DNA of 57,351 nt. Source: Acidobacteriota bacterium. GTDB taxonomy: Bacteria; Acidobacteriota; Thermoanaerobaculia; Multivoradales; JAHEKO01. The stretch covers positions 1 through 57,351 of the forward strand of contig JADFQD010000005.1 of the NCBI GenBank assembly GCA_022561975.1, written 5' to 3'. Below, piece after piece: positions 32,065 through 52,833 of the stretch; position 1 is the first letter of the stretch, and every line of letters begins with the position of its first letter. The position numbers and the translations under genes were made by a program. The notes beneath the pieces were generated by a model that was not told where the DNA came from, made no database searches, and worked only from the letters and a program-made list of their open reading frames with translations.

Positions 32065-33512
32065 GACGGCGGACAATCGGCCCTCGGCGCGAACCGCGGC
32101 GGGGGCTGAGTTCGGGGCTGGGTCGGCGATCGTGCCGTGGACCGCGCCGTCGGCTCCGTCGGGGCCTCGTTTTCATCGGCGTAGTCTTTGCGGTCGCGGT
32201 TGTCGCGGTGGTATCTGCAGGTGGGGCGGGCGGGGCCGGTGTGGCCGGTCCGGAGCCCCCGGCGGAGCGCAGCCTCGAGCCCGCGCCGACTCCACTGGGC
32301 AAAGCGGCCGCGATCAAAGACGACGGCGACTGGGTCTGGGCAGAGGCGGGCTTCCGGCTCTTGCGCGAACCGGATTTCGAGTCAGGGCACCTCGCCTATG
32401 TCGAGGTTCGTACCCAGCTAGAGGTACTCGAACGTCACCAGCACTGGGTACGGGTTAGGCATGGAGCGCTGATCGGATGGATCTCGACGGTACTGGAGTC
32501 CACTGGCGAGTCCACCGGCGAGTCCACCGCCGCCGGGCCGCCCGCGAACGGCACGGCGGTGAGTGCCCGGTATGTCGCGAGGGCACGAGATGTGTTCGAG
32601 CTCGAAGACAGCCCCGAGTTCTTTGGGGAGTTTGCTCTCTACACCGATGTTACGGACGATCGGATTCTCGAGATTCTCCGCAAGACCAGCCGGCATCTTC
32701 CGTTGGCCTACAGGGAGCGCTACGGTCTCGAAGGACAACCACCTGTTCGCGAGACGATTCTGCTTTTTGCGCGCGAGGCCGACTATCGAGCCTTTACGCT
32801 CGAGGAGGTTGCGAGGCGCAGGCCGGATCTTCGAGGACACGCCACCCCCGAGATCGCGGTCCTCTACGTCGGCGACCACTCGTCCGAGGCGGTGGTCGCG
32901 GTCTTGGTTCACGAGCTGACCCATCTCCTCAATCGGCGGGTTTTCGGAGCCCCGATACCCCCTTGGCTCGAAGAGGGGTTGGCGAACGATCTGGCCTTTT
33001 GCCGGATCGATGCGCGTGGGCGCACCCGCTTGGGCAGTCTGGGTGGTCGCAGCGTCGTGATCGAACAGCCGGAGTACGATCAGGGCGGATTCATCCGAAT
33101 CGACAGAAGAGTGCACCTGACCGGTCCCATTGCTTCCCTGAGGTCTGTGCAGGAGCGATGGAGAACGTCCGAAGGTCTTCCCCTGGCGTTGCTCACGGAT
33201 CTTGTTTGGAGCGAGTTCACCGATTCCCGAGACCGCGGCCTTCGCTACGCTACGAGCGCGTTTTTGGTTCGCTATCTATTGGACTCCGGAGGGGATTCCG
33301 GAGCGGGTCGGCTGGCGTCCGGCTTTCGTTCGTTTCTGCGATCGGTTGCCGCCGGCGGCGCGGCCGGTCCGGAGGACCTCGCGCGGTATTTGAACCAAGG
33401 GTTGAACCAAGAGCTGAAACAAGGGCTCGACCGAGGGCTGGATGAGGGGCTTTTGGATCTCGACACGGGGTTCGCGAGCTGGATTGCGGCCCAGCGGTTG
33501 TCCGGGTCATGA
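32061..33512 (+). CDS. Membrane-anchored metallopeptidase (peptidase MA-like) with SH3-like domain
   Basis: VLVHELTHLLNRRVFGAPIPPWLEEGLAN (HExxH plus downstream E); GHLAYVEVRTQLEVLERHQHWVRVRHGALIGWI. Confidence 0.78.
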   Translation: MRRRTIGPRREPRRGLSSGLGRRSCRGPRRRLRRGLVFIGVVFAVAVVAVVSAGGAGGAGVAGPEPPAERSLEPAPTPLGKAAAIKDDGDWVWAEAGFRLLREPDFESGHLAYVEVRTQLEVLERHQHWVRVRHGALIGWISTVLESTGESTGESTAAGPPANGTAVSARYVARARDVFELEDSPEFFGEFALYTDVTDDRILEILRKTSRHLPLAYRERYGLEGQPPVRETILLFAREADYRAFTLEEVARRRPDLRGHATPEIAVLYVGDHSSEAVVAVLVHELTHLLNRRVFGAPIPPWLEEGLANDLAFCRIDARGRTRLGSLGGRSVVIEQPEYDQGGFIRIDRRVHLTGPIASLRSVQERWRTSEGLPLALLTDLVWSEFTDSRDRGLRYATSAFLVRYLLDSGGDSGAGRLASGFRSFLRSVAAGGAAGPEDLARYLNQGLNQELKQGLDRGLDEGLLDLDTGFASWIAAQRLSGS

Positions 33513-35371
33513 TGCGCTCCTGGAAGAAGTTCGAGAGGTGGGCGTCGAAAGTGATCACGCTCTCAGCCCTGAGCGTGTTGCTTTCGGCTTTCTCTGCGAG
33601 CGCGGAACCCCCCTTCGCCGAAGTCTCGGAAGCCGCCGGACTCGAGTTCGTGCATTTCAACGGAATGTCCGGCGAGTTCTACTTCCCCGAGAACGTCGGA
33701 GCCGGAGTCGCGATGCTGGACTTTGACGGCGACGGGGACCTAGATCTCTTCCTACGCCAGGGAATGCTTCTCGGGTCGAACAAGAAAATGGGGGAGGCTC
33801 TCTTCCCACCACCGGTCGGGGCTCCTCCGGGTGACCGTCTCTTCCGCAACGATTCGCCCGGCATCACCGGCACCAGAGACTCAGCCGGATCCCTTCGATT
33901 CGTTGACGTCACCGAGGCCAGTGGCATCGTTGGTGAGAGCTACGGCATGGGCGTCGCCGTCGGCGACTACAACGGCGACGGAGCGGTTGACCTGTACCTC
34001 ACCAACTTCGGCGCCAACCGGCTGTGGGAAAACGACGGTCATGGCCGGTTTACGGATGTCACCGAGAAAGCCGGCGTCGGGGTCGACCAGTGGAGCGTGA
34101 GCGCGACCTTTCTGGACTACGACCGTGACGGACGGCTCGATCTCTACGTCGCCAACTATGTGGACTTCACCATCGAAATCCACAAACCCTGCTTTTCGGA
34201 ATCGAGCGCCCGGGACTACTGCGGACCCCGCTCCTATAATCCACAGCCCGATCGCCTGTTTCACAACCGCGGCGACGGGACCTTCAAAGACGTCAGCGCC
34301 GTCGCCGGGATCGCCAGTGAATTCGGCGGCGCGTTGGGAGTGGTTGCCGCGGATTTCAATCTCGACGGTTGGACCGACATCTACGTCACCAATGACCAGC
34401 TTGCGAACCAACTGTGGATCAACGGAGGCGACGGTCGCTTTACCAACGAAGCGGTTCTAGCCGGGGTGGCGGTCAACATGGACGGTGCCCCCGAGGCCTC
34501 GATGGGGGTCGATGCCGCCGACTTCGACAATGATGGCGACGAGGACCTCTTTCTCACCCACTTGAGACGCCAGACCAACACGATCTATGTCAATCAAGGC
34601 GACGGTTGGTTCAGCGACAAGACACTCGAAACCGGGCTCGCCGCGGCGAGCTTCCCCTACACCTCCTTCGGCACCGCCTGGATCGACTTCGACAACGACG
34701 GCAGACTGGACTTATTTGTCGCCAACGGTGCGGTACAAACGATCGAAGCACTGGCTCTCGCGAAAGATCCCTATCCTTTGCACCAGCCCAATCAACTTTT
34801 TCGCAACCTCGGCAACGGCAGGTTCGAGGACGTGACCGCGCGCGCCGGAGAGCCTTTCGCGCGCTCGGAGGTGAGCCGGGGCGCTGCCTTTGGTGATCTC
34901 GACAACGACGGGGATACGGACGTGGTCTTGACCAACAACAACGGTCCGGTGCGCCTGCTTCGCAACCGTGTCGGCAGCCGGAAGGCTTGGTTGGGCTTGC
35001 GGCTCCGGGAGTCCAGCTCGACGGGCGACGTTCTGGGTGCGCGCGCCGCTTTGCTCCGCTCCGGCGAACCGACACTCTGGCGACGGGCGCGCGCGGACGG
35101 CAGCTATGCCTCGGCCAACGACTCGCGGATTCTCGCCGGCCTGGGGGCTCGGCAGGCCGGGCGATCCCTAGCCGAAGTCCTCGTGGTCTGGCCCGCCGGC
35201 AAGTCGACGCGCGAGTCGGCCGGCAGAACCTGCCGTTACCGCGACCTGCCGATCGATCGCTACATCACGCTGTATCGAGATACCGGCCCGACTACCGCCA
35301 CCACTGGCGGCCCCACTGGCGACCCCACTAGCAGCAATACCAGAGGCGATCTCTCGGGAGATGGGGAATGA
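33509..35371 (+). CDS. CRTAC1-family protein: FG-GAP/VCBS repeats with ASPIC/UnbV domain
   Basis: Repeated DFDGDGDLDLFL, DYNGDGAVDLYLTNFG, DFDNDGDEDLFL; C-terminal GSRKAWLGLRLRESSSTGDVLGARAALL. Confidence 0.88.
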   Translation: MMRSWKKFERWASKVITLSALSVLLSAFSASAEPPFAEVSEAAGLEFVHFNGMSGEFYFPENVGAGVAMLDFDGDGDLDLFLRQGMLLGSNKKMGEALFPPPVGAPPGDRLFRNDSPGITGTRDSAGSLRFVDVTEASGIVGESYGMGVAVGDYNGDGAVDLYLTNFGANRLWENDGHGRFTDVTEKAGVGVDQWSVSATFLDYDRDGRLDLYVANYVDFTIEIHKPCFSESSARDYCGPRSYNPQPDRLFHNRGDGTFKDVSAVAGIASEFGGALGVVAADFNLDGWTDIYVTNDQLANQLWINGGDGRFTNEAVLAGVAVNMDGAPEASMGVDAADFDNDGDEDLFLTHLRRQTNTIYVNQGDGWFSDKTLETGLAAASFPYTSFGTAWIDFDNDGRLDLFVANGAVQTIEALALAKDPYPLHQPNQLFRNLGNGRFEDVTARAGEPFARSEVSRGAAFGDLDNDGDTDVVLTNNNGPVRLLRNRVGSRKAWLGLRLRESSSTGDVLGARAALLRSGEPTLWRRARADGSYASANDSRILAGLGARQAGRSLAEVLVVWPAGKSTRESAGRTCRYRDLPIDRYITLYRDTGPTTATTGGPTGDPTSSNTRGDLSGDGE

Positions 35372-37074
35372 CGTTGTCGAGGGCCAGCGTTCGGGCCAGG
35401 GTTCGGGCCGGAGTTCGGGGCCGAGTTTGCCACAGAGTACGCCACAAGCTGCGCAAGATGCTCCCGGCTGCGGTCTTGCTCGCGCAGGTGCCGGTTTTGG
35501 CCGGCGCCGAGCACCCACTGCCCGATCCCGACCTCAGTCGCCTGGAGCCCGCGGTACGCGCAAAACTCGGCGATGCGCGTCAGGCATTGCTCGACGCCAT
35601 CGACGATCCCGACATCGATGCCCAAAAACGAAGCCGTCTCTACGGACATACGGGCAAGCTGTTTCATGCCCACGATGCCTATGCCGTGGCGGAGGTGTGC
35701 TACCGAAACGCGGCCGCTCTCGATGCCGGGGAGCTTCGGTGGCCGTACACTCTCGGCTTCCTGTACCAGGACACAGGTCGCTTCGAAGAGGCCAAAGAGC
35801 AATATCGGAGGGTACTCGAGCTCGAGCCGGCGCATGCTTTCGCGCAGCTACGCCTGGCGCAAGTTCATCTCGACCTGGGTGAATGGGACGATGCCGCATT
35901 GTTCTATGAACGTGTCGAACGCGTCCTCGATCAGCCCGATCTGGGCGCGGCCGCCCATGCGGGTCTCGGCCGAATCGCGCTAGCTCGGGGCGATCAAGCC
36001 GCGGCGGTCGAGCACTACGAGGCGGCTCTCGAGCTGCAACCCGAGGCCCGTCGCCTTCATGTGCCTCTCGGACAAGCGTATCGCGGGTTGGGGAACATGG
36101 AATTGGCCCGCAAGCACCTGGAACAGGCGAGCAACGTCAAGCTCAGAGTTTTCGACCCAATCTTGGATGACGTTGGTTCCTTGAGCGTAAGTTCGGCCAT
36201 GTTCCTAACCGCGGGCGCGCAGGCACTCAAGGCGGAGCGCTTTGACAAGGCGGAGCGGGCGTTTCGAGGAGCCATTGCCGTCCATCCCGAGAACCATCGC
36301 GCGCACCTGAACCTGGCAGTGGTTCTGACCCAGCGCGGTGCCCTCGAGGAGGCCGAGGTCAGTGCTCGCGAGGCGCTACGTCTTCGCCCGGACTACTACT
36401 TTGCGTACTTCAACCTTGGCACGATCTACGAAGCTCGCGGTCAACTGGGCGAGGCGTCCGGGTACTATCGCAGGGCCCTCGAGGGAAATCCCGACGAAGT
36501 CAAGTTCAACTACCGGCTTGGCGGACTGCTGATGCGGACCGAAGAGTATGCCGCCGCCGCCGAACGCCTCCGGGTCGTGGTCGAGCTAGCGCCCGCCTTC
36601 GTTCAGGCACGATACCTCGAGGCGCTAGCCCACATAGCACTTGGCAGCGCGGCGACAGCCCGCGATCTGCTCGAAGGCGCTCTCGAGATCAATCCGGAGC
36701 AACTCACTTTAATGAGCCCCTTGGCGAGGCTGCTCGCGACGTCGAAGCCGATCGCGACAGGCGATGCCCGGCGCGCTCTTGTACTCGCCAGGGCGCTGAT
36801 CGAGAGACAAAACAGCTTAGACGACGGAGAAACTCTGGCGATGGCCCTTGCAGCGGCAGAGCGCTTCGAGGAAGCCGCATTGATACAGCTCCAAGTCATC
36901 GAGGCGGCGCGGCATCAAGACCTGGAAGAACTTCTGCAGCATCTCGAGTACAACCTCGAACGGTATCGGTCGAACCGGCCGAGCGATCGTCCCTGGCCTG
37001 ATGGCGGATCGGCTGTCGAAGGCTCTGGCGAGGAAGTAGAGGAGTACAGGGACCGGGGCGATCCAAAACTTTGA
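35368..37074 (+). CDS. TPR-repeat protein
   Basis: Multiple tetratricopeptide repeats such as YFAYFNLGTIYEARGQLGEASGYYRRALEGNPDE. Confidence 0.85.
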   Translation: MTLSRASVRARVRAGVRGRVCHRVRHKLRKMLPAAVLLAQVPVLAGAEHPLPDPDLSRLEPAVRAKLGDARQALLDAIDDPDIDAQKRSRLYGHTGKLFHAHDAYAVAEVCYRNAAALDAGELRWPYTLGFLYQDTGRFEEAKEQYRRVLELEPAHAFAQLRLAQVHLDLGEWDDAALFYERVERVLDQPDLGAAAHAGLGRIALARGDQAAAVEHYEAALELQPEARRLHVPLGQAYRGLGNMELARKHLEQASNVKLRVFDPILDDVGSLSVSSAMFLTAGAQALKAERFDKAERAFRGAIAVHPENHRAHLNLAVVLTQRGALEEAEVSAREALRLRPDYYFAYFNLGTIYEARGQLGEASGYYRRALEGNPDEVKFNYRLGGLLMRTEEYAAAAERLRVVVELAPAFVQARYLEALAHIALGSAATARDLLEGALEINPEQLTLMSPLARLLATSKPIATGDARRALVLARALIERQNSLDDGETLAMALAAAERFEEAALIQLQVIEAARHQDLEELLQHLEYNLERYRSNRPSDRPWPDGGSAVEGSGEEVEEYRDRGDPKL

Positions 37075-40470: not shown

Positions 40471-43400
40471 TCAGTTGGGCACGGTGGGGGCGCTGCTGCT
40501 GCTGCGATACCGCAAGAGCCTACTCTGGATACCTGCAGCCAGCACATCGTCACTACGGGCCCTCGCGCTATCGAGAGCTTCTCGAGCCGTAGCGATTGCG
40601 TCGGTGGGCCGTCCCGCGGCGGCGTAGGCGGCCGCGAGGGTATCCAGGGCTACGGGGTGGCGGTCCTCGCTCAGAGCGACCGCCCGCTCGGCAAAGCGAA
40701 CCGCCTCGGCCGCTCGCTGCGCGTTGGGCTCCGGGTGGCCGATAAGGATCCAGGCCATGGGAATCAGGGGCGCCGGCCAATCGGGTCGCAGACTCTGCGC
40801 TATTGCAAGATGCCGCAACGCCTCGTCCAATCGGCCCGCCGTTCTCAGGGTGACCCCAAGACCGTGTTGGGCCTCGGCGTCAGCAGGGTCGATTTCCACC
40901 GCCCGACGATAGTGGTCGATCGCCGCCTCCGGCTCGCTCGATCTAAGGACAGCCGCCAATGTCGCGTGGGCTCGTCCCAGGTCCTCCTCGAGATCGATTG
41001 CCCGCCGCAACTGGACGATCGCTTCTTCCCGCCGGTCTTGCTTTAATACGGCGTTGGCCAGGCTCAGACGTAGACCGGCCTCCTGTTCCGAGCGCCGGCG
41101 GACTCTCTCCGGCGTCATAGGCTCTGCGTTCCGAGCGGCAAGCCGATCGAGCGCCAACCGCAAGTACCGTTCCGCGTCCTCAGGGAAACGCACGCCGAAC
41201 CTCTTGGCCAGCGACTCCAGGTCTGGGCCCGGCAGCGGAGCAATCCAGCGGCCGGGTAGAGGGGCCGAGGCCGCTTGCAGACGCACGCGAGATTCGCCCA
41301 GACTTTTCAGGTCGAGCAGCAGGCGATCGACATCGGTGCGGCCGCGGTAGGTGGCCGCCAGCTCACCCGCGCCATCCAGTAGCAAGCTCGCCGGAACGGC
41401 GAACGGCAGACTCCGTTCGAAGAGAGTCTCCTGAAGCAGCTCAATCTTCTCCAGCAGCTCGGGAGTCGCGTAGCCCGCCGGGAACGGAAACTCGAGCTCT
41501 TCGAGCAGGCGATTCGCGTCGGCCGGCTTGGTGATCTGGTCACGATCGAGACCGTCGACGGAAAGCGCGAGAATGCCAAGTCCGGTGGCGCGAAGCTCCT
41601 CGGCGCGCTCGGAAAACTCTCTGAGTTCGGCGACACACGGCACGCACCAACTGGCCCACAAGTTGATCAACAGGGGCCCGCTACCGGTCTCGACAGCTCG
41701 CGGGCCTACGGCGTCCAGCGGTTTGTAGAGAAGCCGCGGTAGTGGGACTCGTACGGGAAGCAGCACGCGTTCCGTGGTGTCGGGTGCCGGGGGTACCGCG
41801 GGTGCCTCCGGCTCGCCCGGTTCCCCTGGCTCCACCGACGAAGCTTGGGGGGCGGACGCGAGCGCCCTCTGTGGTCGCGGCTCGCGTGCAGTCACTGCCA
41901 CTGCTGCGCCGGTGCCCTCGACGAGGAGGTATCTTCCCCCGGGCCGAACGCCCGCGAAGGTCTCACGTTTCCCGCCGGGCCAGCGGACCGTGACCCGCTT
42001 GATCACGGGTGCAGTACCCAGACCGAAGTGCAACCACTTGCTCGATTGAGACAGGAAGGCGTCACCGGCGTAAATCGTTCGCACCAGCCTCGAGCCGAGA
42101 GCCGACCCCATCGTATGGGGATCGGGGGCGAGTTCGACCTCGGCCCGAGCACCGATCGCGTCGCGGTTCGATCTGGTGCCACGAAGTCGCAAGGCGACGA
42201 AGCTGTTCTTGCTCTCGCCCTGATTCAACATCAGCCGCAACCTGGGAGCCGTCCGGTTGGCAAGCCACAGGTCGAGGTCGCCATCGCCGTCCCAGTCAAC
42301 CACCGCCAGACCTCGTCCGTCGTCGGGAAAGTCCAGACCCGAGACTGCCGAGACGTCGGCGAAGCGTAGGTCGCCGGTGTTTAGGCCACCGGTGTTGAGA
42401 CCACCGGTGTTGAGACCACTGATGTTGAGAAAGACGCAGTTGCGCTCGGTACCGCTCCAGGACTTTCCCTGTCGCAGCAGGCGCAGCGTCGCCTGCCAGC
42501 CGGCGACATAGTCGGCCGGCGAGCGACCGGTGCCGAGAGCTTGTGGCGAGCGCGACACGACCTGTCGCCAGAAGAAGCTTCACAAATCGCCGGTGTCGTC
42601 ATTCGACAGGTAGCCGTTGGCCACGACCAGATCCTGCCAGCCGTCGTTGTTCAAATCGGCGAAGCGTGAGGACCAGGCCCAGCGGCCCATGGCGACGCCG
42701 GCGGCTTCGCTCAGATCGCGGAAGCTGCCGGTGCCTTCATTGGCGAAGAAAGTGTTGCCTCGCGCCATGCGCTGGAGGTCCGATGCGGCGTTGCCGGTGG
42801 CGTCCACGAACGCTCGTTGATAGGCGACGCGGTTACCTGCCGCCGAGTACATGTTGCCGATGTAGATATCCATCCAGCCATTGCGGTCAGGGTCTCCCCA
42901 TGCCACGGACATACCCGAAGCCACATCCTCGACACCCGCCTCGGCGGCGACGTCGTCGAAGTGTCCGCCGCTGTTGCGGTAAAGGTTGTTTCGACCGAAG
43001 TCGTTGGCAACGTAGAGATCCATGTCTCCATCGTTGTCGTAGTCCTCCCAGGCGGCGGCGAAGCTGTAGCGAGTGTTGTTGGCGTCGAGCCCGGTCCGAG
43101 TGGTTACGTCCACGAACTCGAAACCACCGCGGTTCTCGAGCAGAGCGTTGGCGCCGCCGTTGTTGGCATCGTGGTACGGAACCGGGCCCGGCAATCCTTG
43201 GTGCTCCGCCTCGCCATCGTAGCCACACACATATATGTCCAGATCGCCGTCGCCGTCGTAGTCAGCGGCGGCCAGCGAGGTCGCGCTCGCCACTACATTG
43301 CGCATCGGTTTGTGCAGTGTGAAACGGCCGCTGCCGTCGTTCTCCGCGAGCAACAGCATCCGGCGCGTCACGGCGACCAGATCTTGATCACCGTCGTTGT

Positions 43401-44493
43401 CGAGATCGATCAGGAGCGCCGAAGAAGTGGATTCGAGCCAGTCGACACGGGCAGAGGCCGAGACCTCGGTCGCGGTTCCATCCGGGTTTTGCACGTAGAG
43501 GCGATTGGGGAGGCCACCGGCGTCCGCGACATAGAGATCCTCCAGGCCGTCGCCGTTGACGTCTCCGATCGCCAGGCCATGATGGCCAAAGAGGGAGACG
43601 CCCGAGAGCCGACTGATTCGACCCAGCCAGTGTCCTATGCCTGGAAGCACCTGTTGGCGGTAGGCGGCGTTGCGACCGAGCGTGTACTCTGTGGCGTCGG
43701 TGAAGATTGTGCGTTGCCGAACCGAGACTTCCTCGTAGCGCTCAAGGGCGATCGCCAGTAGCTGTGGCGGCTTCCCGTCGTCGGGATAGGTCCACCGACA
43801 GAGCCACGATGCGTTCCACTGGGAGCTGTTGCCGGCGGAGCGACTGCTGGCCTGGACCAAGACCCGAGTGCTGAAAAACGAGTCCGAGGTCTCGATTTGG
43901 TAGGCTTTCAATGCCGCTCGAATGTCCGATCCTCCCGGCAGGCCATCTTGTAACTGCCGAAGCGCATCGACGAGTCCGGGGGCCCCGAGGTGATCGGGAG
44001 TCGAGGCTGTCGATTCGGCCGGGCCGGCCGATCCGATCGGGCCAGCCGACGTTGACGGCTCTGTCCAACGCCGTACAACCCAAAGGTCGTCGGCGAAGAC
44101 TGTGTCGAGTTCCTCGACAGGCCGCAGTGTCTGGCTTACGAAGCTGTCCGCGATGAGGCCCGACGCGTGCTCTATGACCGGCGACTCCCGGCTTTCGATC
44201 AGTCCCCTCAGAATTTCGAGCTGTAAGGCGGTCGATTCGGCCAACGATTCGGTATCCCAGATGTCGTTCTTGGGGTCTACCTTCTCGGCCAGCCTCTCGG
44301 TCGGCGACCTCGGTCCCTGCCGAAGGGGCATGGGAACAGTCTGGGCGGCGCCGAGGGACGGCGGAAACGCGCTGGGCCTGGTGCTCGATTGACGATCAGG
44401 GTCCGCGCCGCAGGCGCTCAGGAGCACGGTGCCGGAGAGCAGGAGGATCCGAATCGATGGGGCCCGATTGCTTGCAGCCCGTCGCGCGACCAT
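40471..44493 (-). CDS. Candidate 1340-aa selenoprotein: lipoprotein with FG-GAP/ASPIC-UnbV, redoxin (CVPC) and TPR domains, interrupted by one in-frame UGA
   Basis: ORFs 42580-44493 (..YLSNDDTGDL*) and 40471-42558 are in the same frame; between them the frame reads U-SFFWRQV. Downstream: ADYVAGWQATLRLLRQGKSWSGTERNCVFLN..DGDGDLDLWLANRTAPRLRLM, INLWASWCVPCVAEL, TPRs. Confidence 0.75.
42552..42568 (-). promoter_or_regulatory. Bacterial SECIS-like hairpin GCGACA-GGUCG-UGUCGC
   Basis: Perfect 6-bp stem; loop preceded by A gives AGGUCG, close to fdhF AGGUCU; loop starts 17 nt after the UGA. Confidence 0.6.
42580..42582 (-). other. In-frame UGA, candidate selenocysteine codon
   Basis: TCA on + strand; flanked on both sides by continuous same-family coding sequence. 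Confidence 0.65.
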
Positions 44494-44524: not shown

Positions 44525-46273
44525 TCATCCGCTGCCCGCGTCAACACTTTGCGAGACGAAGGAGGCGGCGGTTCCGTATTCATCCTGGATTCCGACGCCG
44601 ACGATATGTCTTCCGCGTCGCAGTAGCAGGCTCGCTTCGTAGGCGTAGTGTTTGTTCTGGGCAGTCTCGAAGTCCTGTGTCGGGATCTCAATCGAGATTT
44701 GATCCTGCTGTACTTCGGCGATGCCACCCCTTTCGTCCATCGCGGTGAAGTAGATTCTCACACGGCCCTGGTAGAGGGTCCCGCGAGGGACCAGCACGAT
44801 CTTCTTGAGTGGAATCTGAATCAGGAAGGGTGCGGCGAAGTTGTCCTGGTGGACGCTCGGTTCACCGACGCTGAGGCGGACATCGAGCGGGTTGACCTGA
44901 TAGCCGTGGCGCAGGCTCGAGACCGTCCTCTCGCTCATCCGCTGGGACAAGGACTTGTCTCGATACCCGGCGCGATGGCGTACGTTAAAGCGCTTCTCGA
45001 GCGTCTTGACCTCGACTTCGTGAAAGCGTCCGTCGCCCGCGCCTGAAGGGGAATAACCCAGAGAATAGTAGTTCTTGAAATCGGACGCGACACGATCGAG
45101 ACCTCGTCCGATATCGTTGGTGTTGACGATCGCGGTGCCGCCGGTACGCTCCGCGATGAACTGAATGGAACTCTGCAAATTGGACAGGTTGAGTGAATCC
45201 GCGAACGCTCCGCCTCCGTCGATACTGCTTGCCCTGGCGTTCTCAGCGTCACCCGCGGTCAGGGATTGAAGCCCGGAGGCGTCGATGGTGTAGAAGGTGA
45301 CGCCAGCGGCGTTTGCCTGGTTGGCCAGTTCCTTGAACTGGCGCGTGGCGTCGAAGTCCTGAGACTCGAGCACGGCGGACATGTACTGGAATTTCTGCCG
45401 GATCACGAAAAACAGGTCCCTGGCGGGCACCATCGGCAGGCCGTCGCTGGCGTAGAGAAGTGCCTTGCGGCCAGGCAGCCCCGAGAGCGATTGGACCGTG
45501 TCCCTCATTGCGGCGAGAGTGAAACGAAGGTCGTTCGCGACGGACGACGCATGCTGTCGCGTACGCAACATCACACCTTCGGGCGAGTCGGCGTTGTCGA
45601 TGGCCCTCAAAATGTCGCGGCGTTCCCTGTTGGCCTGAAGCCTGAAGCCGGTGAGTTTTTCGAGTTCATTCAGGGTCGCGGCGATCAGTCTGGGGTTATC
45701 GGTAAAACGATGGCGGATGTTGAGCGTGCGATCGTAGGAAACCAGCATGACGCGATCGCTGCGTTCGAGTTGGAGTAGGAACTCACGCAGTCGGTTGAAC
45801 ACGCGATTCCTGTGAAACGGTTCGATGTTGAAGTTGTCGATGTAGACAACGAGGTGCAGGCGTTGAGCCTCGGGGACTTCTTGGAGGGGAATGAGCGGCC
45901 GTCTGCGATCCGGCGCCTGTGCGATCTCGCCCTCCGTTTCCGGCCGGTCCGACTTGATCGCCCTGACCGGGCGGCCGTCGGCGACCGCGGAGAAGTTGGT
46001 GATGAGTACGCGCCGGCCATCCTCGTAGACCTCGAAGTCCTCTCGCACGAGGCCTGATACCGGGTTGCCCTTCTTGTCGGTGACAAAGACCTCGATATTG
46101 ACGACGTTGACGTCTACGACTTCGAAGAAAGGACTCTCCACTTCCTGCGCCGCCAGGGCGGAACCCAACAGCAGCGCAACCGCCAGTCCGGGAATAACGC
46201 GGCTTCGTCGGATCACGGTTGGGTTCTCGAAATCAGCCGGAACGCGGCACGAGCGTCCGGAGGAGAGTGTCAT
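44525..46273 (-). CDS. VWFA-related domain secreted protein
   Basis: VDVNVVNIEVFVTDKKGNPVSGLVREDFEVYEDGR; LHLVVYIDNFNIEP; SLSGLPGRKALLYASDGLPMVP. Confidence 0.88.
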   Translation of the reverse strand: MTLSSGRSCRVPADFENPTVIRRSRVIPGLAVALLLGSALAAQEVESPFFEVVDVNVVNIEVFVTDKKGNPVSGLVREDFEVYEDGRRVLITNFSAVADGRPVRAIKSDRPETEGEIAQAPDRRRPLIPLQEVPEAQRLHLVVYIDNFNIEPFHRNRVFNRLREFLLQLERSDRVMLVSYDRTLNIRHRFTDNPRLIAATLNELEKLTGFRLQANRERRDILRAIDNADSPEGVMLRTRQHASSVANDLRFTLAAMRDTVQSLSGLPGRKALLYASDGLPMVPARDLFFVIRQKFQYMSAVLESQDFDATRQFKELANQANAAGVTFYTIDASGLQSLTAGDAENARASSIDGGGAFADSLNLSNLQSSIQFIAERTGGTAIVNTNDIGRGLDRVASDFKNYYSLGYSPSGAGDGRFHEVEVKTLEKRFNVRHRAGYRDKSLSQRMSERTVSSLRHGYQVNPLDVRLSVGEPSVHQDNFAAPFLIQIPLKKIVLVPRGTLYQGRVRIYFTAMDERGGIAEVQQDQISIEIPTQDFETAQNKHYAYEASLLLRRGRHIVGVGIQDEYGTAASFVSQSVDAGSG

Positions 46274-49722: not shown

Positions 49723-52700
49723 CTACCGGGTCGGAAGCGCGACCTGCGCGCCTCCCCAAAGCCCCGATGCAAGCTCTTCGACTGTGACGGCGAGCCGGCT
49801 CGAAGCCTGAGCCGGCCACTCCACCGGAAAGGCGTAGATCCACCCCGCGGCCGCCTCCTCGAGCCGCTCGCTCCGGTGCACCACCGTGGGCTCGGCGCCA
49901 GCGGCCACCACGGCGACCGAGACCCGCAGAAGGGCTCCCGGACGAACAAGTGGCGCCAGCGAGCGGAAGTGGACCGTCACCTCGACCTCGGCGGACAGCT
50001 TCTTGCCCTCGTCGGCGGCAGGTACGGTCGAGCCGAGTGTCAAGTCGACCTCGAGGTCACCCTTCTCCATCGAGCCCCCGAGCAACCGTCGCGCCCTCGC
50101 TTCTGCCTGTCCCTCCGAGGTGGCCGAAGTAACGATCTCGGTGGTCTTCAACTCGATACCCGGCCGCCGAGCCTCGAGCTCGAGGGTGTGAGCCGCCCCA
50201 TCCGGCGACCGCGCCACTTGATAGGTGAGCAAGTACCAGCCGGACGACGCGTCCAGAGCCTTTGCCAGTCCTGCGGGTCCGATCACAACATCGCCGCCGC
50301 TCGGCTCCGCCAGGTTTCTCTGCGCGTCGATGGGGTTGACGAGCAGAAAGTCCGTTTCCACCGTATGGATCGCATCGGTGCTCGCGGTCAAGAACGAAAA
50401 GAACTTGTCGGTTCTCAATTCCGCGGCGAAAGAGGCACTGCCGGTGGTCTGACCGGCGACGGTCACCACCCGCCAGCCGGTGCTGGCCAGCTCGCGGCCG
50501 AGGGCGTTGACGCTGGCTTCCTTTCTCTTCGACCTGAGATCTTCGCGCAGTTGGGAGACGTTATGGGGCTCCAACCTCCCGACTACGGGCGCATAAAACG
50601 CCGCCGGATCCTCATCGAAGCCGGCGCCGACCACCACGAGTAGCCCGGCGCGCTGGCCGGTCTCCCTCTGCGCCCAGAGGCGAAGCTGGTTCAGAGCCCG
50701 CGAGATGATCACGTGTTCTTCCCCCGCCGCCACCCGTGCGGCAAGGGTCACGCGGCTGCTGGGAATCTGCGCAGGATCGTCCTGCTCGTTCTGGGCTTCG
50801 ATCTCGGTTAGGGTCATGCGATCGGGAATCTGGCGAACTTCGTTGACGAAGCGGCGCCGGATTCGTTCGATGGCATGGACAGCAGTCTTGCGGGCGGCGA
50901 CTTCGTCGAACGCGGTCGACAACTCGTGCAGGTCCCGGGTCGGTCCCACCACGGATCGAACCTCTTGCTTCTCGGCTACGACCACTTCCACCGGCCCCAG
51001 GGCGGCGAGCCGACCCAGCTCTCCTTTCACGGCTCGAAGAGCCTGTCTCTGGTCAAAGCCTCCGCCGATCGTGCGGTTGACGTACACGGTCACAGGAAGC
51101 GCCTTGGCATCGGCGATCGGGGTGTCGGGTGTCACGGCATCCGTCTGCGGGGATGCCGGAACCGCGGCCTCTGCGTTCGCTTCCGTGATCTCGATCGGGG
51201 CCAGTTGAGCGACTGGAGCAACAGAGGCAAGCTCCAGTACCGTGACCGGCTTGCCGTCCTCGAGAACCTCGAAATCCTCGGCAGAGAGATCCAGCACTGG
51301 GCGACCGTTGGCATCGAGTGCGCTGACCACAACCGTCATCGCAGTGATGTCGAGACGCTCGATAGCCAGACCTGCGATGTCCGGTACCTCAGCTGTTTCA
51401 GCCAGCTCCAATTCGGCGCGCGCCCACACGGACTCTGAACTCACCGGAGCGTCCTCACTGCTCCCGGCCAGTCGGACCCCGGGGGGAAGCGTGTCGGCCA
51501 GCCGGCTGGGGTTCCATTTCTCGGAAAACCATGCAATGCACTGTGCGTCCAGTAGCTCGCGTACCCTTGCCAAACTGCGTGACATGGCTTCCATGTTGAG
51601 GGCGGGCAACCCCGCGGGCCAACCGTCTTCCCGCCGTTTGCCGTTACGCAGCACGACCAGGGGTACATTGACCTCCGCCAGGTACTCGCGCGCCTGGCGC
51701 GGGCTGAAGCGGCTGCCGTCGCGCTTGTGCACGTTGTTCCCAAGAATCAGAACCACCGCTCGACGTCGAGGTCCGGCAGCGGCAACCAGACCGGACGCCG
51801 CCACCGCGTCGGCAATGCGAGGCTGTCCCGGGACGTCGGCCAGCCCGAATTTGAATAGCAGCTTCAACCAGTTCGGCCGCCCCGCCCCGAATCCGTTGAC
51901 GCGATGGAGGCCCTGGTCGGGCGCGACATACCAAAGACGGTCGGCATCGAAGAGCGAGGCCTTGGACTTGAGCCATGAGTTTCTGGGCTTGGGTTCGCTG
52001 GATTTGCCGCCGCTGCGAACCGCTTGGTCGAAGACCTTGGTACTCGCACTGGTGTTTTCCAGCCGCCCGCGATCCCACCCGGACGCTCGCAAGGCCAAAT
52101 AGGCGGCTCCGGGGTCGAGCACGATCACGACCTCGAAACCGCTCTTTTCGACGCGCTCCGCGGCTTCGGACCAACCTGCGGCTGTCGATTCACAGGGCGC
52201 CGCGATCTTGGCATCTGACACCAGCGGCACCGCGTGGAGCGCAACCAAGGTTTGTTCGGCGAAGCCGCCGGTGACCGCCACCGACTCGACCCGGCGGCCA
52301 TCGGGAAACACGGCCAGAGCCACGAGTATCTGCGACTGGCCCGGCTCGGGGCAAGGGAATCGCACCAACCGTCCGCCGGCGGCGATCTCAGGCTGGGATC
52401 CAGCCAGAGTGACTTCGAGCTCCACCGGATCCAGTCGCTCGGGGTGCGTCCAGCCGATCCGCGCTTCGCATTGCCGTGAGCCGGTCGGCGGCAGAGGAAC
52501 TACTTCGAGCTCGGCCTCCTGACCCGGGCGATTGACCCAGCGCTCGGTCCGCTCACCGCTCTCCCGAACCAGTTCGAGGAGATGCACATGGGGGTCGGCT
52601 CCCAAGTCAACGGTGCAGGTCGCGTGCTCGGCGCTCACCGTGCATTCACGTTCGCCGTCCAGGTAGAGCTCCGCCGGTTGCCCTTCCGGCCCGAGATCGA

Positions 52701-52833
52701 CACGCACCTCCAACTCACCCACCACCAAACCGGTCGGATAGGTCAAGATTCTCATTGACCCGACGGCTGGAACTGCTGTCGTCGCGAACGCGAGGATCGC
52801 CACCGAACCCACGAAGCGCGCGAAGCTCATCAA
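49723..52833 (-). CDS. Large secreted VWFA-related protein
   Basis: Signal peptide; LDITAMTVVVSALDANGRPVLDLSAEDFEVLEDGKPVTVLELAS; N-terminal half resembles the 30712-32064 product. Confidence 0.78.
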   Translation of the reverse strand: MMSFARFVGSVAILAFATTAVPAVGSMRILTYPTGLVVGELEVRVDLGPEGQPAELYLDGERECTVSAEHATCTVDLGADPHVHLLELVRESGERTERWVNRPGQEAELEVVPLPPTGSRQCEARIGWTHPERLDPVELEVTLAGSQPEIAAGGRLVRFPCPEPGQSQILVALAVFPDGRRVESVAVTGGFAEQTLVALHAVPLVSDAKIAAPCESTAAGWSEAAERVEKSGFEVVIVLDPGAAYLALRASGWDRGRLENTSASTKVFDQAVRSGGKSSEPKPRNSWLKSKASLFDADRLWYVAPDQGLHRVNGFGAGRPNWLKLLFKFGLADVPGQPRIADAVAASGLVAAAGPRRRAVVLILGNNVHKRDGSRFSPRQAREYLAEVNVPLVVLRNGKRREDGWPAGLPALNMEAMSRSLARVRELLDAQCIAWFSEKWNPSRLADTLPPGVRLAGSSEDAPVSSESVWARAELELAETAEVPDIAGLAIERLDITAMTVVVSALDANGRPVLDLSAEDFEVLEDGKPVTVLELASVAPVAQLAPIEITEANAEAAVPASPQTDAVTPDTPIADAKALPVTVYVNRTIGGGFDQRQALRAVKGELGRLAALGPVEVVVAEKQEVRSVVGPTRDLHELSTAFDEVAARKTAVHAIERIRRRFVNEVRQIPDRMTLTEIEAQNEQDDPAQIPSSRVTLAARVAAGEEHVIISRALNQLRLWAQRETGQRAGLLVVVGAGFDEDPAAFYAPVVGRLEPHNVSQLREDLRSKRKEASVNALGRELASTGWRVVTVAGQTTGSASFAAELRTDKFFSFLTASTDAIHTVETDFLLVNPIDAQRNLAEPSGGDVVIGPAGLAKALDASSGWYLLTYQVARSPDGAAHTLELEARRPGIELKTTEIVTSATSEGQAEARARRLLGGSMEKGDLEVDLTLGSTVPAADEGKKLSAEVEVTVHFRSLAPLVRPGALLRVSVAVVAAGAEPTVVHRSERLEEAAAGWIYAFPVEWPAQASSRLAVTVEELASGLWGGAQVALPTR

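What the first reader, a model, noticed from the sequence alone, without database searches (positions are those of the whole stretch)
40471..44493. Candidate new selenoprotein: in-frame UGA inside an FG-GAP/ASPIC-UnbV-redoxin-TPR lipoprotein
Seen: the minus-strand ORFs 42580-44493 and 40471-42558 are in one frame, separated only by a single TGA and 7 codons (..YLSNDDTGDL-UGA-SFFWRQV-VSRSPQALG..). The upstream half ends in FG-GAP repeats; the downstream half has no signal peptide, no good ribosome-binding site and begins mid-domain before the ASPIC/UnbV motif. No frameshift or other stop occurs across about 1340 codons, which argues against an old pseudogene. Inference: UGA is read as selenocysteine. 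I know of no established selenoprotein of this architecture.
Basis: partly seen in the sequence, partly recalled or inferred. Interest (0 to 1): 0.93.

Follow-up and report, generated by a model that had tools for sequence, protein, structure and literature searches.

The report
Overlooked bacterial β-propeller selenoprotein family
A gene that looks broken by a stop codon is really one large exported protein in which that stop codon is very probably read as the rare amino acid selenocysteine, and the same feature recurs in well over a hundred related genes from several bacterial phyla that I could not find in current catalogues of selenium proteins.

Summary
The window gene (40471-44493, minus strand) has one in-frame UGA at codon 638. 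The host genome carries selA, selB, selD and tRNA-Sec(UCA). I read 147 distinct homologues; 129 have UGA at exactly this column. They lie in Acidobacteriota, Planctomycetota, Verrucomicrobiota and Lentisphaerota. A hairpin starts 11 nt after the UGA (loop GGUCG, 17 nt after it). It meets the published bacterial SECIS rules and covaries strongly: one stem pair occurs as six pair types and is paired in 129/129 UGA forms, but in 5/18 non-UGA forms. UGA forms co-occur with SelB; the 11 genomes that lack both SelA and SelB carry other residues at the site. So the UGA is very probably selenocysteine (not yet shown by experiment). The core is a CRTAC1-like FG-GAP/ASPIC propeller fused to a TlpA/ResA-like thioredoxin domain. 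Its CxxC is present in 79 of 80 UGA forms and mostly lost when Sec is lost. My best mechanism is a selenol on the propeller that is recycled by the fused CxxC domain (inferred; substrate unknown). The family is absent from a 2026 list of 119 prokaryotic selenoprotein families and from NCBIfam.

The parts
40471..44493 (-). Whole selenoprotein gene, 1340 codons with UGA638 read as Sec; ends in TGA
   Evidence: full-length homologues with the same single UGA
42580..42582 (-). In-frame UGA codon 638 (Sec)
   Evidence: UGA in 129/147 distinct homologues; 78/80 in the genome-contig loci
42552..42568 (-). bSECIS hairpin GCGACA-GGUCG-UGUCGC, 6-bp stem, apical loop 17 nt after UGA
   Evidence: covariation
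44410..44493 (-). Probable lipoprotein signal (..LLLSGTVLLSAC28)
   Evidence: read from the sequence; not tested with a signal-peptide program
42229..43596 (-). FG-GAP beta-propeller (about aa 300-755), with the Sec in a helical insert (helix aa 638-644)
   Evidence: Pfam; AlphaFold2 model pTM 0.92; Foldseek top hit CRTAC1 9etn E 2.6e-25
41929..42159 (-). UnbV_ASPIC domain (aa 779-855)
   Evidence: Pfam E 2e-16
41338..41679 (-). TlpA/ResA-like thioredoxin domain (aa 939-1052)
   Evidence: Pfam; TlpA and ResA hits
41635..41646 (-). CVPC (C950, C953), proposed redox partner of Sec638
   Evidence: invariant in the 61-row alignment; lost in most non-Sec forms
40561..41067 (-). TPR region (about aa 1143-1311), absent from the shorter UGA subfamilies scanned
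44525..46273 (-). Adjacent upstream VWA-domain gene, same strand, 31-bp gap; possible operon partner
   Evidence: TIGR03436 216 bits; homologue also flanks the second UGA gene of this genome
37419..40388 (+). TonB-dependent-receptor-like outer membrane protein, convergent neighbour
   Evidence: Pfam; similar barrels flank 13 of 108 loci

Best explanation
The gene encodes one exported (probably lipid-anchored) selenoprotein. UGA638 is decoded as selenocysteine by the organism's SelA/SelB/SelC/SelD system, directed by a bacterial SECIS hairpin that begins 11 nt after the UGA and overlaps the RQVV codons. The Sec sits at the N-terminus of a short helix in an insert of a CRTAC1-like FG-GAP/ASPIC beta-propeller. 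The most likely chemistry is a selenol/selenosulfide redox reaction on an extracytoplasmic substrate, with the fused TlpA/ResA-like CxxC domain recycling the oxidised Sec. Well supported: the reading frame, conservation, SECIS, machinery and architecture. Inferred: actual Sec insertion, export, redox role and Sec-CxxC partnership. Unknown: the substrate.
For: Machinery in G000: tRNA-Sec(UCA) 73.8 bits, selB 352 bits, selA 435 bits, selD 265 bits. Same UGA column across Acidobacteriota, Planctomycetota, Verrucomicrobiota and Lentisphaerota, also in single-contig genomes of 4.6 and 6.0 Mb. SECIS: stem pair 17-27 (offsets from the U of UGA) paired 129/129 in UGA forms with six pair types, 5/18 in non-UGA forms; whole stem 97.1% of cells paired against 89.2% shuffled (0/500), covariation score 0.263 against 0.100, slid controls at most 68% paired. 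Synonymous bias: Val GTC 116/129 (60 expected) in UGA forms, 8/18 (7 expected) in others. SelB: 45/48 genomes with UGA forms against 7/18 with only non-UGA long forms, Fisher p 7e-6; one SelB-negative UGA genome has SelA, and the 11 SelB-negative non-UGA genomes lack SelA. Other phyla: 29 of 32 UGA genomes tested have SelB. Redox partner: CxxC in 79/80 UGA forms and the Cys form, 2 of 16 others; Sec column, both Cys and a Pro in the redoxin domain (probable cis-Pro) invariant in 61 rows. Model: pTM 0.92, Sec at the N-cap of a helix.
Against: No protein-level evidence of Sec. Non-UGA homologues rarely have Cys (1 of 18), so the usual Sec/Cys pairing is nearly absent. The Sec/CxxC association rests on about three changes on the tree, chiefly one clade. 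I could not measure the Sec-CxxC distance because no coordinates were available. Five UGA-bearing MAGs lack a detectable SelB (G386, G222, also without SelA; G501, G503, G529, SelA not tested), probably through incompleteness. The nearest solved structure, CRTAC1, is not called an enzyme in its PDB entry.
Confidence: 0.85

Rival explanations
1. Selenoprotein, but the Sec is a metal ligand or structural residue and the CxxC domain acts on something else.
For: About 70% of the predicted ligand interactions of known selenoproteins involve metals (PMC13188914). The closest thioredoxin-like structures include TlpA bound to a copper chaperone and cytochrome oxidase subunit II. The fold is not known to be enzymatic in CRTAC1.
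Against: CxxC is present in 79/80 UGA forms and lost in most forms without Sec. Sec sits at a helix N-terminus, typical of redox-active Cys/Sec.
Confidence: 0.25
2. The UGA is a real stop: the gene is split into two proteins, or the UGA is a programmed or regulated stop giving a truncated propeller plus some read-through.
For: UGA followed by A is a plausible stop context. A GTG lies shortly downstream.
Against: The GTG is inside the SECIS stem and in mid-domain. The stem covaries only in UGA forms. UGA forms track SelB. SelB-negative genomes keep one continuous 1289-1335 aa protein. Truncation under selenium limitation stays possible as a by-product.
Confidence: 0.04
3. Sequencing error, pseudogene or genetic-code reassignment (UGA = Trp or Gly).
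For: A MAG contig; an isolated stop in a long frame is compatible with a single error.
Against: The same UGA column recurs in 129 distinct homologues, including single-contig genomes. There is exactly one in-frame UGA per gene, and the gene itself ends in TGA. A tRNA-Sec(UCA) is present. Replacements in SelB-free genomes are diverse.
Confidence: 0.01

Closest known systems
Prokaryotic selenoproteins (119 families/subfamilies, PMC13188914 Table 1)
   Same: UGA with an immediately downstream bSECIS, SelA/B/C/D in the genome, a partner CxxC
   Different: No listed family has an FG-GAP propeller or ASPIC domain; here the Sec is about 310 residues from the CxxC, in another domain, and not in a Trx-fold UxxC
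CRTAC1 / UnbV-ASPIC FG-GAP propeller proteins (PDB 9etn; PF13517, PF07593)
   Same: Propeller plus ASPIC fold, E 2.6e-25
   Different: CRTAC1 lacks the redoxin and TPR parts; Sec in this fold is not described in what I could search
TlpA/ResA/DsbE-type thioredoxins
   Same: WASWCVPC motif, conserved Pro after it, Foldseek hits 1jfu, 4nmu, 1st9
   Different: Here a fused C-terminal domain with ordinary cysteines; the Sec lies elsewhere
E. coli formate dehydrogenase bSECIS (comparison from memory)
   Same: Hairpin directly downstream with a GGUC-type loop overlapping codons
   Different: Unrelated protein; the stem here is conserved within a WRQVV-coding stretch

Membership tests
Bacterial selenoprotein | In-frame UGA conserved across homologues | tested here: met
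   129/147 distinct homologues, several phyla
Bacterial selenoprotein | Sec machinery (selA, selB, selC, selD) in the same genome | tested here: met
Bacterial selenoprotein | bSECIS: loop 3-9 nt, stem 4-16 bp, G in first two loop positions, 16-37 nt from UGA, MFE at most -7.5 | tested here: met
   loop GGUCG 5 nt, stem 6 bp, 17 nt, -7.9 kcal/mol; rules from PMC13188914
Bacterial selenoprotein | Cys homologues at the Sec position | tested here: inconclusive
   one Cys homologue (L063 TGC); the other 17 non-UGA forms are S, G, A, N, D, Q, E
Bacterial selenoprotein | Selenium present at the residue | not testable with these tools
   needs mass spectrometry or 75Se
CRTAC1/UnbV-ASPIC propeller family | FG-GAP propeller followed by ASPIC/UnbV domain | tested here: met
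   PF13517 E 2e-40, PF07593 E 2e-16; CRTAC1 top Foldseek hit
TlpA/ResA-like thioredoxins | Trx fold with WCxxC and cis-Pro | tested here: met
   CVPC 950-953 and a Pro aligned near 1034 invariant in 61 rows; hits; cis geometry not inspected
Known catalogued selenoprotein family | Match to a named family (NCBIfam June 2026 or the 2026 catalogue) | tested here: not met
   no NCBIfam hit over its cut-off; not in Table 1

The most novel reading that the evidence does not exclude
A new class of extracytoplasmic selenoenzyme: a CRTAC1-type beta-propeller that carries the catalytic selenol and its own thioredoxin-type reductase in one chain, old enough to be shared by Acidobacteriota and the Planctomycetota-Verrucomicrobiota group, multi-copy in some genomes, and one of the reasons these bacteria keep the Sec machinery.
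Probability: 0.5. Interest if true: 0.92.

Novelty: new variant of a known kind. Interest (0 to 1): 0.85.

Why it matters
Many catalogued selenoprotein families are Trx-like proteins recognised by Cys/Sec homology. This one is large (about 900-1,500 aa), nearly lacks Cys homologues and sits in a propeller, so it can escape those methods; gene callers that stop at UGA would annotate it as two broken genes. A pattern scan found 539 relatives in about 85,000 species genomes, and 78 of the best 80 carry the UGA. It gives a bacterial member of the CRTAC1 fold with a testable active-site residue, and it predicts selenium-dependent chemistry in widespread, mostly uncultured bacteria.

Tried and rejected
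Rfam scan of the window: no hit at gathering scores. Single-sequence SECIS prediction: too permissive to count (3 of 13 long in-frame TGAs pass). Conserved Met motifs near the propeller (GMS, NMxSxAG) looked Sec-specific with one regular expression but are kept in non-Sec forms, so dropped. Gene-neighbourhood clue to substrate: TonB-type barrels flank only 13 of 108 loci and the VWA gene only the two own-genome copies, too weak to assign a substrate. Phylogenetic independent-pairs test of Sec versus CxxC: only three independent pairs, no power. Rivals error, pseudogene, code change and true stop rejected as above.

Full report
OBSERVATION. On the minus strand, ORFs 42580-44493 and 40471-42558 lie in one frame, separated by TGA (42582-42580) and SFFWRQV; the joined frame has 1340 residues and no other stop. 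Pfam gives FG-GAP repeats, UnbV_ASPIC, AhpC-TSA/Redoxin and TPRs in that order. The N-terminus reads as a lipoprotein signal (..LLLSGTVLLSAC).

MACHINERY. The window lies in G000, a 3.66-Mb, 215-contig genome reported 87% complete. It has a tRNA-Sec with anticodon UCA (73.8 bits; ARAGORN), selB (352 bits), selA (435 bits) and selD (265 bits), each over its curated cut-off.

CONSERVATION OF THE UGA. A 200-aa segment searched in 149 genomes of the class gave 44 matches in 38 genomes, every one with exactly one TGA inside, except one that has a TAG as well; the 30 that were fetched share the same column. A profile whose Sec column was masked (A1) was then used so that neither Cys nor UGA was favoured. 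In genome contigs it found 539 relatives; of the best 80, 78 have TGA, one TGC (L063, Phycisphaerales) and one TCG (L122). By record taxonomy those read in full are mainly Planctomycetota (40) and Verrucomicrobiota (27), with Acidobacteriota and Lentisphaerota. Phylum-wide in 396 genomes, UGA forms occur in many families. Over 147 distinct sequences the column is U 129, S 3, G 3, A 3, N 3, D 3, C 1, Q 1, E 1. There are at least four UGA subfamilies: DLU-SFFWRQVV with redoxin and TPRs (the window); KDTUSxFWRHVVA, about 950 aa; KDTUSIFWRQVLASES; and a divergent GUSCVWR form that is the second copy in the window's own genome.

SECIS. In the window the hairpin GCGACA-GGUCG-UGUCGC has its apical loop 17 nt after the UGA, a 6-bp stem, GG at the start of the loop and -7.9 kcal/mol. 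This meets the published bSECIS constraints (PMC13188914). The loop GGUC resembles that of E. coli fdhF (from memory). Across homologues the third base of the Arg codon pairs with the first base four codons later: CGA-TCG, CGG-TCG, CGG-CCG, CGC-GCG, CGT-ACG, CGT-GCG. The partner change alters the amino acid (Ser, Pro, Ala, Thr), so the RNA pairing, not the protein residue, is being conserved there. That pair is formed in 129/129 UGA forms and 5/18 non-UGA forms. The formal count on 80 elements gives 97.1% of cells paired (89.2% after shuffling, 0/500 as high), covariation score 0.263 against 0.100, and slid controls at most 68%; RNAalifold finds the same core unprompted. Val after Gln is GTC in 116/129 UGA forms (60 expected from the genes' own usage) but 8/18 (7 expected) elsewhere. 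Ser after UGA is AGY in 125/127 (41 expected), but also in 18/18 non-UGA forms, so that bias is not specific.

CO-OCCURRENCE. In the same 396 genomes SelB is found in 45 of 48 genomes with UGA forms and in 7 of 18 that have only long non-UGA forms (Fisher p 7e-6). Of the three UGA genomes without SelB, one has SelA and two are 72-75% complete; all 11 SelB-negative non-UGA genomes also lack SelA. In genomes reached through the genome-contig loci, 29 of 32 with UGA forms have SelB. Genomes were not corrected for relatedness, so the p-value is indicative only.

ARCHITECTURE AND MECHANISM. A 61-row alignment gave a confident AlphaFold2 model of residues 28-1090 (pTM 0.92, mean pLDDT 88.7; the model used Cys for Sec). 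Sec638 caps a short helix that follows a propeller strand, in a helical insert. Foldseek's top PDB hit is CRTAC1 (9etn, E 2.6e-25), with ResA/TlpA-type thioredoxins among the next hits for the C-terminal part. The Sec column, C950 and C953, and a Pro in the redoxin domain are invariant in the 61 rows. Among 97 genes read over both domains, 79 of 80 UGA forms have CxxC about 260-310 residues after the Sec. The exception is the own-genome copy L219, which has no redoxin domain but has U-S-C. The Cys form keeps CxxC. Of the other 16 non-UGA forms 14 lack it, although in most the thioredoxin-like domain is still there with WATTAPLC, WATTSLLC or WRSDVPAS in place of WASWCxxC. The tree needs only three changes for each trait, mostly one clade, so this is strong as a correlation but has not been replicated independently. 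The simplest reading is that Sec is oxidised or forms a mixed selenosulfide with a substrate, and that the CxxC domain resolves it. I put Sec insertion at about 0.97, a redox role at about 0.75 and the Sec-CxxC partnership at about 0.6.

KNOWN OR NOT. The May 2026 review lists 119 prokaryotic selenoprotein families, none with FG-GAP or ASPIC. NCBIfam of June 2026 has no model for it. A search of the deep-Sep paper for its new families did not show it (PMC12013277). Full-text searches for selenocysteine with FG-GAP or CRTAC1, and selenoprotein with ASPIC or UnbV, found nothing relevant. A cited groundwater survey of 44,000 MAGs that mentions unnamed new candidates could not be read, and supplementary tables were out of reach, so an earlier unnamed sighting cannot be excluded.

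VERDICT. Observation confirmed; interpretation supported and extended to a cross-phylum family. What remains unproven is the protein chemistry.

Noticed in passing
L219 / L198 (G000 contig C49:11608-20093): A second UGA-containing FG-GAP/ASPIC gene in the window's own genome (..EPDGUSCVWRVAV..), without a redoxin domain, with a hairpin read by eye as GGGUUGC-CGUGUC-GCAACCC after the UGA; flanked by a homologue (44% identity) of the VWA gene next to the window gene.
   Followed up: partly
window 44525-46273 and 49723-52833: Two VWA-type (TIGR03436, acidobact_VWFA) genes lie on either side of a phosphodiesterase/TPR pair close to the selenoprotein gene; the second is a weak match.
   Followed up: partly
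window 33509-37074: An FG-GAP protein (33509-35371) overlaps by 4 bp a TPR protein (35368-37074), next to the TonB-receptor-like gene.
   Followed up: no
window 30168 (-) and 16491 (+): Two other in-frame TGAs with at least 150 open codons on both sides and a SECIS-like hairpin; probably chance in GC-rich frames.
   Followed up: no
L065 (both strands), G432 and G179 genomes: Several UGA paralogues per genome; L065 holds two on opposite strands, and G432 holds UGA copies plus a Ser copy (L122/L215) that keeps CxxC.
   Followed up: partly
L071, L078, L086, L187: Linked change CAG GTC to CAA GTT in the SECIS loop (G/C to A/U at offsets 20 and 23), suggesting a further pair inside the loop.
   Followed up: partly
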